Shown: positions 8,085 to 11,241 of the stretch, piece after piece
How the letters are laid out: every line of letters starts with the position of its first letter
How positions within the stretch are numbered: the stretch's first letter is position 1
Origin: Halorhabdus sp. CBA1104
Lineage (GTDB): Archaea; Halobacteriota; Halobacteria; Halobacteriales; Haloarculaceae
DNA length: 64,000 nt
Assembly: GCF_009690625.1 (NCBI RefSeq)
Contig: NZ_CP033878.1
Location: 1,736,001-1,800,000 of the forward strand
Reading direction: 5' to 3'
The notes under the pieces: generated by a model
Database searches by the model: none
What the model was told of the DNA's origin: nothing
What the model saw: the letters and a program-made list of their open reading frames with translations, nothing else
Translations under genes and position numbers: made by a program

Positions 8085-8525
8085 ATGACGAACGACCGTG
8101 TGGCGGACCTGGTCGACGATGCTGTGGATGTGGAGGGAATCCGCCGATATCTGCGGAATTCGGACGTTCTCTTTGCGGTCCTGTTCGGCTCGCTCGTAAG
8201 CGACACGGCTCACGAATCTTCCGATGTCGACGTAGCACTCCAGTTTCCGGACGAGATGACGTCAAAAGAACGCTTTCGGCATCGAAATCGACTCGACGCC
8301 GAACTACAGACGTATGCCGAGCGATTCGTCGACGTGAGTGATATCGAAGCGCTACCAGTACCCGTTGCACGTGCGGCACTCCGGGATGGAATTCGACTCG
8401 TCGGTGATGAACAGGAGATTAACGCGTACCGCAAGCGGGTCGAATCCGAGTACGAGACGTCTGCTGAGCGACGAGAGCAGGAACGTCGAGAATTCATCGA
8501 TCGTCTGGCGAAAGGAGAGTTATAG
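8085..8525 (+). CDS. MNT-domain nucleotidyltransferase antitoxin (MntA-type)
   Basis: A 146-residue minimal nucleotidyltransferase with the signature G35-S36-x10-D47-V48-D49 (LFGSLVSDTAHESSDVDVAL). In type VII toxin-antitoxin modules such proteins neutralise the HepT RNase by AMPylating a tyrosine next to its active-site His. The C-terminal third is helical (RKRVESEYETSAERREQERR). Its stop codon directly abuts the start of the HepT gene, so both are made from one message. The pair lies just before the IS-disrupted thpR, in a stretch of accessory character. Confidence 0.88.
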   Translation: MTNDRVADLVDDAVDVEGIRRYLRNSDVLFAVLFGSLVSDTAHESSDVDVALQFPDEMTSKERFRHRNRLDAELQTYAERFVDVSDIEALPVPVARAALRDGIRLVGDEQEINAYRKRVESEYETSAERREQERREFIDRLAKGEL

Positions 8526-8954
8526 ATGGTCGACGAGGAAGTAGTCGTGACCAAGTTGGAACAGGTCAACGAATTTGCGCACGACCTCGAAGAGATGCGT
8601 GGGCTGTCGAAGGACCAGTACGTCTCGGATATCGTGATTCAGCGGGCGGTCGAGCGGACGTTCATGAATCTGATTCAGTCGTGCATCGACCTTGCCCAGC
8701 ATATTCGTGCCGCCGAGGATCTGACGGCGGCGCGGACATCGAAAGAAGAGATCGAAGCTCTCGGCAAAGAAGGCATCATCTCCGCCGAGACGCAAGAACG
8801 ACTCGAAGAAGCCGTCGGGTTCCGAAATGTACTCGCCCATCGGTATGGGGACGTAGATCACGAAACAGTGTACGAGGTACTTCATGAAGACCTGCACTGG
8901 TTCGAACAGTTTCAACAGGAAGTTGCCCAGTGGTTTCGCAAGCAGGAATCGTAA
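8526..8954 (+). CDS. HepT-like ribonuclease toxin (DUF86)
   Basis: A 142-residue all-helical HEPN protein with the R-x4-H-x-Y motif complete: R100, H105 and Y107 in GFRNVLAHRYGDVD. In characterised HepT/MntA pairs the Arg and His form the RNase site of a dimer, and the Tyr is the residue modified by MntA. Length and N-terminal helix fit DUF86. It begins at the nucleotide after the MntA stop codon. All key residues are intact, so the module appears functional. Confidence 0.88.
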   Translation: MVDEEVVVTKLEQVNEFAHDLEEMRGLSKDQYVSDIVIQRAVERTFMNLIQSCIDLAQHIRAAEDLTAARTSKEEIEALGKEGIISAETQERLEEAVGFRNVLAHRYGDVDHETVYEVLHEDLHWFEQFQQEVAQWFRKQES

Positions 8955-9026
8955 CAGTTCGGGCATGATGATTGACACAAACAAATCTGGTGTAACGCTG
9001 AAAAAGACAGCACTAGAGAAGGACGT

Positions 9027-9428
9027 ATGAGCAAGCGACTGTTCGTCAGCGTCGACCTCGACGGCCTCGGCGAGGCGGTCGCCCCAGTCCAAGAACACTT
9101 CGAGGCTGTGTCGGGCCTGAACGTCGTCGACCCACACCAGGCCCACGTCACACTGAAATTCCTCGGCGACACTGATCCCGACCAAGTGCCCGAACTCACC
9201 GACGAACTCGCGGCCGCGGTCGATGAAAGCGGCGTCGAGCCATTCGAGACCGAGCTCGGCGGCCTGGGCGCGTTCCCGAGCACGGATTACATCAGGGTCG
9301 TCTGGCTGGGTGTCCGCGAAGGGGGCGAGCAACTCACCCGACTGCACGAGGCAATCGAGGAACGTACAGTTGCGATGGGGTTCGATCCCGAAGAGCACGA
9401 CTTCACCCCACACGTCACGCTGGCCCGC
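9027..9428 (+). pseudogene. thpR: RNA 2',3'-cyclic phosphodiesterase (ThpR), 5' fragment
   Basis: The first ~134 residues of the 2H phosphoesterase ThpR (2'-5' RNA ligase family). Both catalytic HxT motifs are present: HVTLKFLG (H40) and HVTLARV (H129). The reading frame then enters an IS200/IS605-type element and continues through it for ~58 unrelated residues to a stop at 9605. The missing last ~50 residues are found intact beyond the element at 10964-11119. Joined together the two parts give about 185 residues, the usual family length. The fragment keeps both catalytic motifs but lacks the last strands of the fold, so loss of function is likely but not certain. Confidence 0.9.
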
Positions 9429-9538
9429 GTCAACCGCCTCGGGGTCAAGTGGTTCGAGACGCCGGAGGCGTCTCGTCATCACGAGAGAGCGAAGCTCTCT
9501 CGAACGACCCCGAGGCTTGTCAGTGGACTCCCACTCTA
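9429..9538 (-). ncRNA. Candidate omega-RNA (reRNA) scaffold at the 3' end of tnpB
   Basis: Directly after the tnpB stop codon lies a nested structure. A 10-bp outer stem pairs 9437-9446 with 9506-9515 and encloses an 8-bp hairpin (9455-9475) and a 9-bp hairpin (9482-9502). TnpB nucleases use an RNA from the tnpB 3' end and right element end, with the guide taken from flanking DNA. Here the guide would be the complement of thpR just upstream of 9429. The structure is read from sequence; the role is inferred, and the RNA probably begins inside the tnpB coding region. Confidence 0.55.
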
Positions 9539-10765
9539 TCCGCGTAATGCGGAAGGCGTGAAAGTGCCGTTCGCGTTCAGCGTCCCTGACTTGAGGGCCA
9601 GTTGACTGATGGCCCGTCCAGCCCCAGACTTGAGCCAGTGCTGGAGGAGACGCCACCCGATATTCCGAGCGGCGTTATAGTCGGCGTGGAGTTCCTTTCC
9701 ACACTTCAGACACTCGAACTCGTCACCATCACGATTATCCTCGTGCGTGAACCCGCATTCGCCGTGACTGCACCGCTGACTCGTATAAGCAGGCGCAACA
9801 TCGTCAACATCGATGCCGTATTCTTCGGCTTTGTATTCGACGTGGCGTTGAAGTTCACGGAATGCCCACTGCTGGAACTTCGAGGCGTTCGAGATACGCT
9901 CGCGGATATGCGTCAGGTTCTCGAACGCAATCGCTGTGCAGTCGTTCTCGACGGCTTCCTGCACAATGGCTTTCGAGACGCGGTGGAGGTAGTCTGCACT
10001 CCACCGAGCGAACCGTGAGCCGACGCTCTTGATTGTGAGATGCGCGGAACGAGTGCCCGTCTGTTGGAGATTACCACGCCGACGTTCATACTCGTCGCGC
10101 TTGTGGTTGAGATAGTCTACATTGCCAAAGAACGCTCCTGTACTGGTGACGGCGAGGTGACCGTCCACGTTCAAATCGACGCCGAGAACCACTCCGTTCT
10201 CGGTCGCTTCGTCGCCAGAATCAACGGTTTCGACTTCTTTCTCGACTGCGACGTGGAGGTAGTACGTGCCGTCACGCTTGTGGAGTGTTGCTTCCTTGCG
10301 CTCCCAGTCATCTGTCCAATATTCCGCGAACGGCGTGCCCTCGTCGTCTTCGGGCGTGACGAACTCGGCGGTCACGCGGTCGCGCACGGTGGCGAGGGTA
10401 ACGTGGTCGTCGTTGTACGTGATGGTTCGCCCGTTGTACACGACGACACTCCCTCGAAACTCGGGCTTGCTTGCCTTTTTGCCGTCGTCGAGGATTCGGT
10501 CTTTGCAGTTGCCGAGTGCGTCGGCGGCGAGGTTGCGGGCGGATTGGACGAGACTGGCTTGCAGACTGGTCTGCTCCCGAACCTCCGTGTAGGTTTGGTT
10601 GTGGAGCGTGTTCTTTGTGTCCTCGATTTCTGTGGGGTCGTCGTTCCATCCAGCGTCAGCGACGTGTTGGGCCGCTTGACGGAATTGCTCGAACGTCTCA
10701 TCGAGGACGCTGTGAGCGTCCTCGGGAACGTCGAGCTTTAGCTGGATGTTGCGGACGACCTCCAT
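9536..10765 (-). CDS. tnpB: TnpB, RNA-guided nuclease of an IS1341-type element
   Basis: A 409-residue TnpB, full length for the family. The three RuvC acidic residues are present: D197 in LGVDLNVDGHL, E282 in IAFENLTHIRER and D362 in HADYNAARNIG. A zinc ribbon lies between the last two (C332 and C337 in RCSHGECGF; CLKCG near 352-355). The N-terminal region has the usual helical and beta-barrel segments (VVVYNGRTITYNDDHVTL). No damage is visible, so an active nuclease is expected. A TATA-like AT-rich stretch (10768-10806) precedes the start. Characterised relatives cut the empty donor site with a right-end-derived guide and so favour element retention. Confidence 0.95.
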   Translation of the reverse strand: MEVVRNIQLKLDVPEDAHSVLDETFEQFRQAAQHVADAGWNDDPTEIEDTKNTLHNQTYTEVREQTSLQASLVQSARNLAADALGNCKDRILDDGKKASKPEFRGSVVVYNGRTITYNDDHVTLATVRDRVTAEFVTPEDDEGTPFAEYWTDDWERKEATLHKRDGTYYLHVAVEKEVETVDSGDEATENGVVLGVDLNVDGHLAVTSTGAFFGNVDYLNHKRDEYERRRGNLQQTGTRSAHLTIKSVGSRFARWSADYLHRVSKAIVQEAVENDCTAIAFENLTHIRERISNASKFQQWAFRELQRHVEYKAEEYGIDVDDVAPAYTSQRCSHGECGFTHEDNRDGDEFECLKCGKELHADYNAARNIGWRLLQHWLKSGAGRAISQLALKSGTLNANGTFTPSALRG

Positions 10766-10963
10766 ACTTCATTAGTATGCTTAGAGATACTTGAAAGTAT
10801 TTTTTCAGTCGTTGGGGAGTCGGACTTGCCATCGCGTGTGGTTTGTGTCGTCGAGTGTCGGCTTCTGCTCGCGGGCCGCAGGCCCGCTCGCACGGCCCGC
10901 GGAACGGAGTTCCGCGCTGTCCTCCCCGACCTCAAGGGTCGGGGTATCCGCCTCGCAATCTCT

Positions 10964-11119
10964 ATGAACCACGCCGGCGGGAAGGAACTCGTCCAGAACG
11001 TGCTCCAGGAGAAGGATCCGACGGTCGGTACCCTCCAAGTCCAAGACATCCGGGTGACCGAGAGTGTTCTGACCGACGACGGTCCAGCGTATGCGACCAT
11101 CGAATCATTTGAACTCTGA
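10964..11119 (+). pseudogene. thpR: RNA 2',3'-cyclic phosphodiesterase (ThpR), 3' fragment
   Basis: The last ~51 codons of thpR, starting MNHAGGKELVQNV and ending GPAYATIESFEL before a TGA. This C-terminal strand region directly follows the second HxT motif in intact ThpR proteins. It is in frame with the 5' fragment if the 1535-bp element is removed, giving LAR(M/V)NHAGG. It has no promoter of its own that I can see and would be translated only if some message reads in. Confidence 0.88.
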
Positions 11120-11241
11120 TATGAACTCGGGGCGCTAAGTGGTACGCACCGCCGATTTAGGCTGGGTAAAGTACTTAGCCTGGCCAAAATTGGTATGGAA
11201 AGTGATAATTATTAAGTGGTCCACGGCCCAACGAACAGCCG

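What the first reader, a model, noticed from the sequence alone, without database searches (positions are those of the whole stretch)
9027..11119. thpR split by a tnpB-only element without loss of gene sequence
The 5' part (through the second catalytic HxT motif) and the 3' part (from NHAGGKELVQ) of thpR flank a 1535-bp element and would rejoin in frame. No target duplication and no tnpA are seen, as expected for IS1341-type elements. This looks like a recent insertion into a conserved RNA-processing gene, and the truncated ThpR keeps both catalytic motifs.
Basis: partly seen in the sequence, partly recalled or inferred. Interest (0 to 1): 0.72.

Follow-up and report, generated by a model that had tools for sequence, protein, structure and literature searches.

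The report
TnpB transposon splits haloarchaeal thpR gene
In a salt-loving archaeon, a small mobile DNA element that encodes an RNA-guided DNA-cutting enzyme has landed cleanly inside a gene for an RNA-end-trimming enzyme; this is an ordinary kind of insertion, but an unusually clear case for testing whether such elements copy themselves across all the chromosomes of a many-chromosome cell.

Summary
A 1535-bp tnpB-only (IS1341-type) IS200/IS605 element occupies 9429-10963, antisense to thpR, in a Halorhabdus chromosome. No base of thpR is lost or duplicated: 9027-9428 plus 10964-11119 rejoin as a 185-residue ThpR (..HVTLAR|MNHAGGK..), and all 6 congeners hold an uninterrupted 185-residue gene. 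On the element strand it sits directly 3' of TTCAT, the motif at the same end in 21 of its 23 closest relatives, and its right end is followed by a would-be guide reading thpR. TnpB is intact (D197/E282/D362, zinc ribbon). No other genome of 146 in the family showed this split and thpR shows little decay, so it looks recent; no second genome of the species was available. The truncated ThpR keeps both HxT motifs but loses a helix and three of nine predicted strands, so it is probably inactive. Best mechanism: insertion at TTCAT with TnpA in trans, then TnpB-omegaRNA cutting empty thpR copies so that repair copies the element across a presumably polyploid chromosome. Anatomy is shown; cutting and drive are inferred. 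New member of a known kind.

The parts
9027..9428 (+). 5' part of thpR (codons 1-134), both HxT motifs (HVT 40-42, HVT 129-131)
   Evidence: TIGR02258 110.6 bits, cut-off 65.7, on ORF 9027-9605; alignment with congeners
10964..11119 (+). 3' part of thpR (codons 135-185 + stop), begins ATG AAC CAC
   Evidence: joined translation of 185 aa as in 6 of 6 congeners
9429..10963 (-). tnpB-only IS200/IS605 (IS1341-type) element, 1535 bp
   Evidence: ends shared with other copies; empty site in congeners
9536..10765 (-). tnpB, 409 aa, intact RuvC residues D197, E282, D362 and zinc ribbon
   Evidence: NF040570 guided_TnpB 176.9 bits, cut-off 100; PF07282; alignment to 8j3r; residue numbers counted by me from that alignment, their catalytic role is recalled
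10964..10968 (-). TTCAT, transposon-adjacent motif directly 5' of the left end (ATGAA on the + strand); part of the host gene
   Evidence: TTCAT at the same place in 21 of the 23 closest related loci L018-L040, 35 of all 78
10920..10963 (-). left end with subterminal palindrome
   Evidence: 44 of 44 bases identical in L018 and L057
10866..10919 (-). 54-bp two-hairpin module in the left end, absent from the closest sister elements
   Evidence: comparison with L018 and L057; similar modules in L161, L162
9429..9600 (-). right end and presumed omegaRNA scaffold, overlapping the 3' end of tnpB
   Evidence: fold z-score -6.06, 0 of 200 shuffles as stable (the stretch folded was 9413-9600); right-end hairpins covary over 9 copies
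9450..9507 (-). 58-bp two-hairpin module inside the terminal stem of the right end, absent from the short right ends of sister elements
9413..9428 (-). presumed 16-nt guide (reads thpR)
   Evidence: position next to the right end; no perfect TTCAT + first 11 guide bases in the genome; exact match behind TTCAT in congener G003
9027..9605 (+). truncated ThpR reading frame: 134 native residues + 58 encoded by the element
   Evidence: ORF list

Best explanation
A tnpB-only IS200/IS605 (IS1341-type) element inserted, most likely as single-stranded DNA by a TnpA acting in trans, directly 3' of TTCAT on the antisense strand of thpR in a Halorhabdus lineage, splitting the gene between codons 134 and 135 without losing a base. 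Its right end then abutted thpR sequence, so its omegaRNA acquired a guide for TTCAT + GCGGGCCAGCGTGACG. TnpB loaded with it would cut any chromosome copy that still has, or has regained by excision, the empty thpR site; repair from an occupied copy would restore or spread the element. In a polyploid haloarchaeon this makes a local gene drive that could fix an insertion even in a well-conserved, apparently dispensable gene. Shown: anatomy, exact empty site, motif, intact TnpB frame and residues, absence of a perfect target site in the genome. Inferred: TnpA in trans, omegaRNA expression, cutting, drive, polyploidy of this strain, loss of ThpR activity.
For: Exact empty site in 6 of 6 congeners, same length 185 aa. 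Left end behind TTCAT in 21 of the 23 closest relatives and right end [GA]TTGAC in 17 of those 23. TnpB over the guided_TnpB cut-off with all three RuvC acidic residues. Right end folds far better than shuffles and its hairpins covary. Own genome: no perfect TTCAT + first 11 guide bases among 40 places with up to 3 mismatches; the occupied site itself shows TTGAC in place of TTCAT. Congener G003 keeps TTCAT and matches the guide for 18 nt. Two TnpA genes elsewhere in the genome. Published: TnpB of insertion sequences as a drive in multicopy plasmids (PMC11870625, passages read); omegaRNAs/sotRNAs expressed in haloarchaea (PMC12558985, abstract and passages); haloarchaeal polyploidy and gene conversion (PMC4056108, PMC11276520, abstract starts in the listing).
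Against: No expression, cleavage or ploidy data for this strain. A motif search of the two resident TnpA loci (L016, L017) found no matching ends, so the transposase that moved the element is not identified. One place in the own genome has TTCAG + the same 11 bases, and one relative (L058) has TTCAG at its left end, so self-targeting is not fully excluded. Only one sequence of the species is held, so fixation is unknown. Across 28 placed intact thpR loci of 29 tried, only 8 have TTCAT at this site and only 1 of these matches all 16 guide bases, so drive between species would be narrow. Insertion into reading frames is not clearly enriched in the related loci examined: 10 of 23 joined flanks have a spanning frame of at least 150 codons against 35% of mismatched joins.
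Confidence: 0.6

Rival explanations
1. Plain transposition and drift: a TnpA in trans inserted the element, thpR is dispensable, and the insertion was fixed by drift or by ordinary gene conversion, with TnpB playing no part at this site.
For: TnpA genes exist in the genome; thpR has a distant 2H-family relative at C1:2462829 that might soften the loss; gene conversion in haloarchaea is reported to equalise chromosome copies (PMC11276520, listing only).
Against: TnpB is intact at the residues checked and the guide/motif geometry is perfect; thpR is otherwise kept almost everywhere in the family (138 of 146 genomes have a match, nearly all uninterrupted).
Confidence: 0.33
2. Split but working ThpR: the complement of TTCAT is ATGAA, so the 3' part begins with an in-frame ATG; N- and C-terminal pieces might be made separately and associate.
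For: 10964 is ATG and opens the 51-codon 3' part; both parts are free of stops and branch dN/dS is low.
Against: The ATG follows from the insertion motif: all 23 TTCAT sites examined show it, most with short frames. No AT-rich stretch at the distance expected for a promoter of a leaderless transcript (my reading). The 3' part shows the higher dN/dS estimate, 0.25, with a wide range.
Confidence: 0.04
3. Old, stable insertion kept by vertical descent.
For: Only one genome of the species is held, so persistence within the species cannot be tested.
Against: Absent from 6 of 6 congeners; element has intact ends and frame; little decay of thpR.
Confidence: 0.03

Closest known systems
IS1341-type (tnpB-only) IS200/IS605 elements of haloarchaea, e.g. 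those of Haloquadratum and Natronomonas (PMC3119063, passages read)
   Same: tnpB without tnpA, no terminal inverted repeats, near-terminal palindromes, no target duplication, single divergent copies
   Different: this copy is intact, its empty site is resolved to the base, and it carries an extra two-hairpin module in both ends
ISDra2 / Deinococcus TnpB-omegaRNA system (PMC8612924, listing only)
   Same: TnpB, right end as guide RNA scaffold, motif 5' of the left end used as the target motif (recalled)
   Different: motif TTCAT here (ISDra2's TTGAT is recalled); no tnpA in the element; activity untested
sotRNA / omegaRNA of Halobacterium (Rfam RF02656, RF02657; PMC12558985)
   Same: RNA at the 3' end of a haloarchaeal tnpB
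   Different: this right end matches no Rfam family at E <= 1; RF02656 does match two other places of the same genome, one over the cut-off
TnpB gene drive in multicopy plasmids (PMC11870625)
   Same: proposed logic: cut the empty copies, repair from or replace by the occupied one
   Different: chromosomal and archaeal here, and only inferred

Membership tests
IS1341-type IS200/IS605 element | encodes TnpB of the RNA-guided family with RuvC triad and zinc ribbon | tested here: met
   (176.9 bits, cut-off 100)
IS1341-type IS200/IS605 element | no tnpA within the element | tested here: met
   ORF list of 9429-10963 with tnpB as the only long frame that matched a family; the genome's two Y1_Tnp genes lie elsewhere
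IS1341-type IS200/IS605 element | no target duplication; inserted 3' of a fixed short motif | tested here: met
   TTCAT in 21 of 23 closest relatives, 35 of 78
IS1341-type IS200/IS605 element | subterminal palindromes instead of terminal inverted repeats | tested here: met
   left end CCCCGACC..GGTCGGGG, right end CCTCGGGG..CCCCGAGG
TnpB-omegaRNA (OMEGA) system | structured RNA at the right end | tested here: inconclusive
   structure supported, expression not testable; no Rfam match
TnpB-omegaRNA (OMEGA) system | guided cutting next to the motif | not testable with these tools
   needs biochemistry
ThpR / RNA 2',3'-cyclic phosphodiesterase | two HxT motifs in the 2H fold | tested here: met
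   motifs in the 5' part; family score over cut-off; fold predicted for congener G003, pLDDT 92.2; closest solved chains 1vdx, 2fyh
ThpR / RNA 2',3'-cyclic phosphodiesterase | complete C-terminal part | tested here: not met
   split copy lacks residues 135-185, holding helix 141-150 and strands 154-160, 162-171, 174-184 of the congener model
IStron (self-splicing TnpB element) | group I intron in the sense orientation of the host gene | tested here: not met
   tnpB is antisense to thpR; no Rfam match at E <= 1 in 9000-11200

The most novel reading that the evidence does not exclude
The insertion in thpR was driven to homozygosity by TnpB on a polyploid archaeal chromosome: a natural chromosomal gene drive of a tnpB-only element that overrode the retention of a conserved RNA-processing gene, and that could also convert the thpR of a sister species (G003, TTCAT plus 18 matching bases).
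Probability: 0.3. Interest if true: 0.62.

Novelty: new member of a known kind. Interest (0 to 1): 0.33.

Why it matters
Why haloarchaea carry so many tnpB genes without tnpA, and how these spread, is open; PMC3119063 (passages read) already found strain-specific insertions of IS605-type elements hard to reconcile with the lack of intact tnpA. Here the empty site, motif and guide are known to the base, the host gene is otherwise nearly universal in the family, and a sister species offers a natural, fully matching target, so whether TnpB spreads its element across polyploid chromosomes can be tested directly. As an insertion as such it is ordinary.

Tried and rejected
Assembly chimera: rejected, because both element ends agree with independent copies. 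Self-splicing intron or IStron: rejected (antisense orientation). Known sotRNA family at this right end: none. Insertions of this element family favouring reading frames: not supported. Start codon created at the junction as a general feature of use: the ATG is there in all 23 cases because it is the complement of TTCAT, but most frames are short. A second family member with thpR split by tnpB: none read; G127 has thpR broken by other DNA with loss of gene sequence, G103 has an internal deletion and frame break, G060 is intact with extra residues; G127 and G103 are incomplete genomes. Same-site insertion of sister elements in an SRAP-like gene of three genomes as proof of homing: flanks are alike for about 200-550 bp and then unrelated, and only part of the gene is matched on one side in L099, so shared transfer explains it as well. 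Close copies in phages: none, all 277 matching records are under 60% identity. Plasmids hold copies up to the 95-99% band (that band may be short matches); 9 of 99 matching records cover at least 80% of the element.

My first join, used in the query and in one translation, had V (or a wrong frame) at the junction; corrected. PDB matches of ThpR to TAL-effector chains cover only about 28 residues and were ignored as chance.

Full report
What is there. The window is part of a 2,628,395-bp single-contig genome. Its genus is Halorhabdus: for congener G001, locus L118 is contained letter for letter in L062, Halorhabdus amylolytica H27. thpR starts at 9027 and is in frame through 9428; from 9429 to 10963 lies an element with tnpB on the minus strand (9536-10765, 409 aa); thpR resumes at 10964 and ends at 11119.

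The exact join. Aligning the flanks with congeners shows ..GCCCGC|ATGAACCACGC.. in the intact gene (L004), while the left flank here reads GCCCGC|GTCAACC and the right flank CTCT|ATGAACCACGC. Read on the element's strand this is TTCAT|AGAGATTGCGAGGCGG ... CCCCGAGGCGGTTGAC|GCGGGCCAGCGTGACG. The joined gene has 185 codons plus stop, exactly the length of all 6 congeners held.

Independent support for the ends. In the loci fetched by TnpB similarity (78 loci), TTCAT sits at the matching left end in 35 of 78 and a right end of the form ..TTGAC in 27 of 78 by a fixed motif rule; among the 23 closest (L018-L040) it is 21 and 17. The rest were not examined by eye; many are more distant or truncated; L058 shows TTCAG. 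L018 (Halapricum hydrolyticum, TnpB 97% identical) and L057 share the first 44 bases fully.

The protein and the RNA. TnpB scores 176.9 bits against the guided_TnpB model (cut-off 100) and aligns to an IS605 OrfB/Cas12f-type chain with D197, E282 and D362 in place (numbering counted by me). The right end with the first guide bases folds with z = -6.06. Compared with the short right end of sister elements, this one has a 58-bp insert of two hairpins inside the terminal stem, and the left end a 54-bp insert. In an alignment of nine right ends that carry the insert, 203 of 207 pair cells (98.1%) are standard pairs, with 14 cells changed on both sides against a shuffled mean of 4.1 (0 of 500 shuffles reach it); the number of pairs with such a change, 5, is reached by 61 of 500 shuffles; slid registers reach at most 52.7% paired. 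I chose the structure after seeing these sequences, which favours it. No Rfam family matches 9000-11200 at E <= 1.

Where the guide points. The would-be guide is thpR itself. In the own genome no perfect TTCAT + 11-nt match exists among 40 places with up to 3 mismatches (the control pattern read backwards gave 75); the occupied site appears with TTGAC in place of TTCAT, so the element should not cut its own locus; one place has TTCAG with the same 11 bases. Of 28 placed intact thpR loci of 29 tried, 8 have TTCAT at the site, 2 of these with at most 2 mismatches in 16, and 1 (G003) with none; there the match runs 18 bases.

How recent. 6 of 6 congeners are empty. In the family search, 138 of 146 genomes have a ThpR match; by hand count of the listing 132 have a single match covering at least 147 of 185 residues, and only G000 shows two in-order pieces about 1.5 kb apart with no gene loss. 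thpR here has no stop or frameshift; branch dN/dS is 0.10 (5' part), 0.25 (3' part), 0.15 (joined), with bootstrap ranges 0.05-0.19, 0.08-0.91 and 0.09-0.28 (triple with G003 and G001; other triples gave 3' values of 0.53 and 0.27). Unique residues at sites invariant in the other six: 5 of 84 and 4 of 33, the latter the highest of the seven genomes. So decay is small at most; slight relaxation of the 3' part is possible. Matches of 700 bases or more in the genus reach only 70-72% DNA identity, while copies of 88-96% over most of the element lie in other genera and on plasmids, which suggests arrival by transfer; short right-end pieces of up to 89% do occur in the genus.

What it does to ThpR. 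The 192-aa open frame 9027-9605 holds 134 native residues and 58 from the element. AlphaFold2 on 12 intact relatives, G003 first, gives pLDDT 92.2; the break falls at the end of strand 129-135, and helix 141-150 and strands 154-160, 162-171 and 174-184 are lost. Retained HxT motifs therefore do not argue for activity. A distant 2H-family protein (167 aa) lies at C1:2462829; whether it can stand in is unknown.

Mechanism. IS200/IS605 insertion next to a fixed motif with TnpA in trans, followed by TnpB retention and spread, fits the anatomy. Two Y1 transposases reside in the genome, but a motif search of their loci found no matching ends, so the acting TnpA is unknown. A TnpB gene drive has been reported for multicopy plasmids (PMC11870625, passages), and well-studied haloarchaea are polyploid with efficient gene conversion (PMC4056108, PMC11276520, PMC8223754, abstract starts in the listing). 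Putting these together for this locus is my inference. A search for papers holding TnpB, haloarchaea, guide and gene conversion together found none; searches for thpR or Halorhabdus with TnpB or IS1341 listed no title or abstract describing this insertion (listings only, open-licence library).

Verdict. The finding is right in substance, corrected by two residues at the join. It is an ordinary kind of insertion with unusually complete evidence and a testable drive hypothesis.

Noticed in passing
10866-10919 and 9450-9507: Two-hairpin modules of 54 and 58 bp sit in both near-terminal palindromes; they are absent from the closest sisters but stretches holding them are about 85-94% alike in ends of very different TnpB elements and in copies without tnpB nearby. 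They resemble the SMR-A repeats (about 110 bp) that PMC3119063 reports inside IS605-type palindromes. One lies within the presumed omegaRNA.
   Followed up: partly
8085-8954: An MNT/HepT-like pair lies directly upstream of thpR. In the loci held (1.5 kb upstream), congeners G004 and G005 have only the MNT gene and no HepT match was found in any of the six.
   Followed up: partly
   Followed up: partly
L149 4500-6027: thpR of genome G127 is broken by about 1.2 kb of other DNA with loss of the middle of the gene; genome 76% complete.
   Followed up: partly
G000:C1:2438455-2438615: A copy of the sotRNA family RF02656 over its cut-off lies beside a tnpB remnant (140-aa open frame) elsewhere in the genome.
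   Followed up: no
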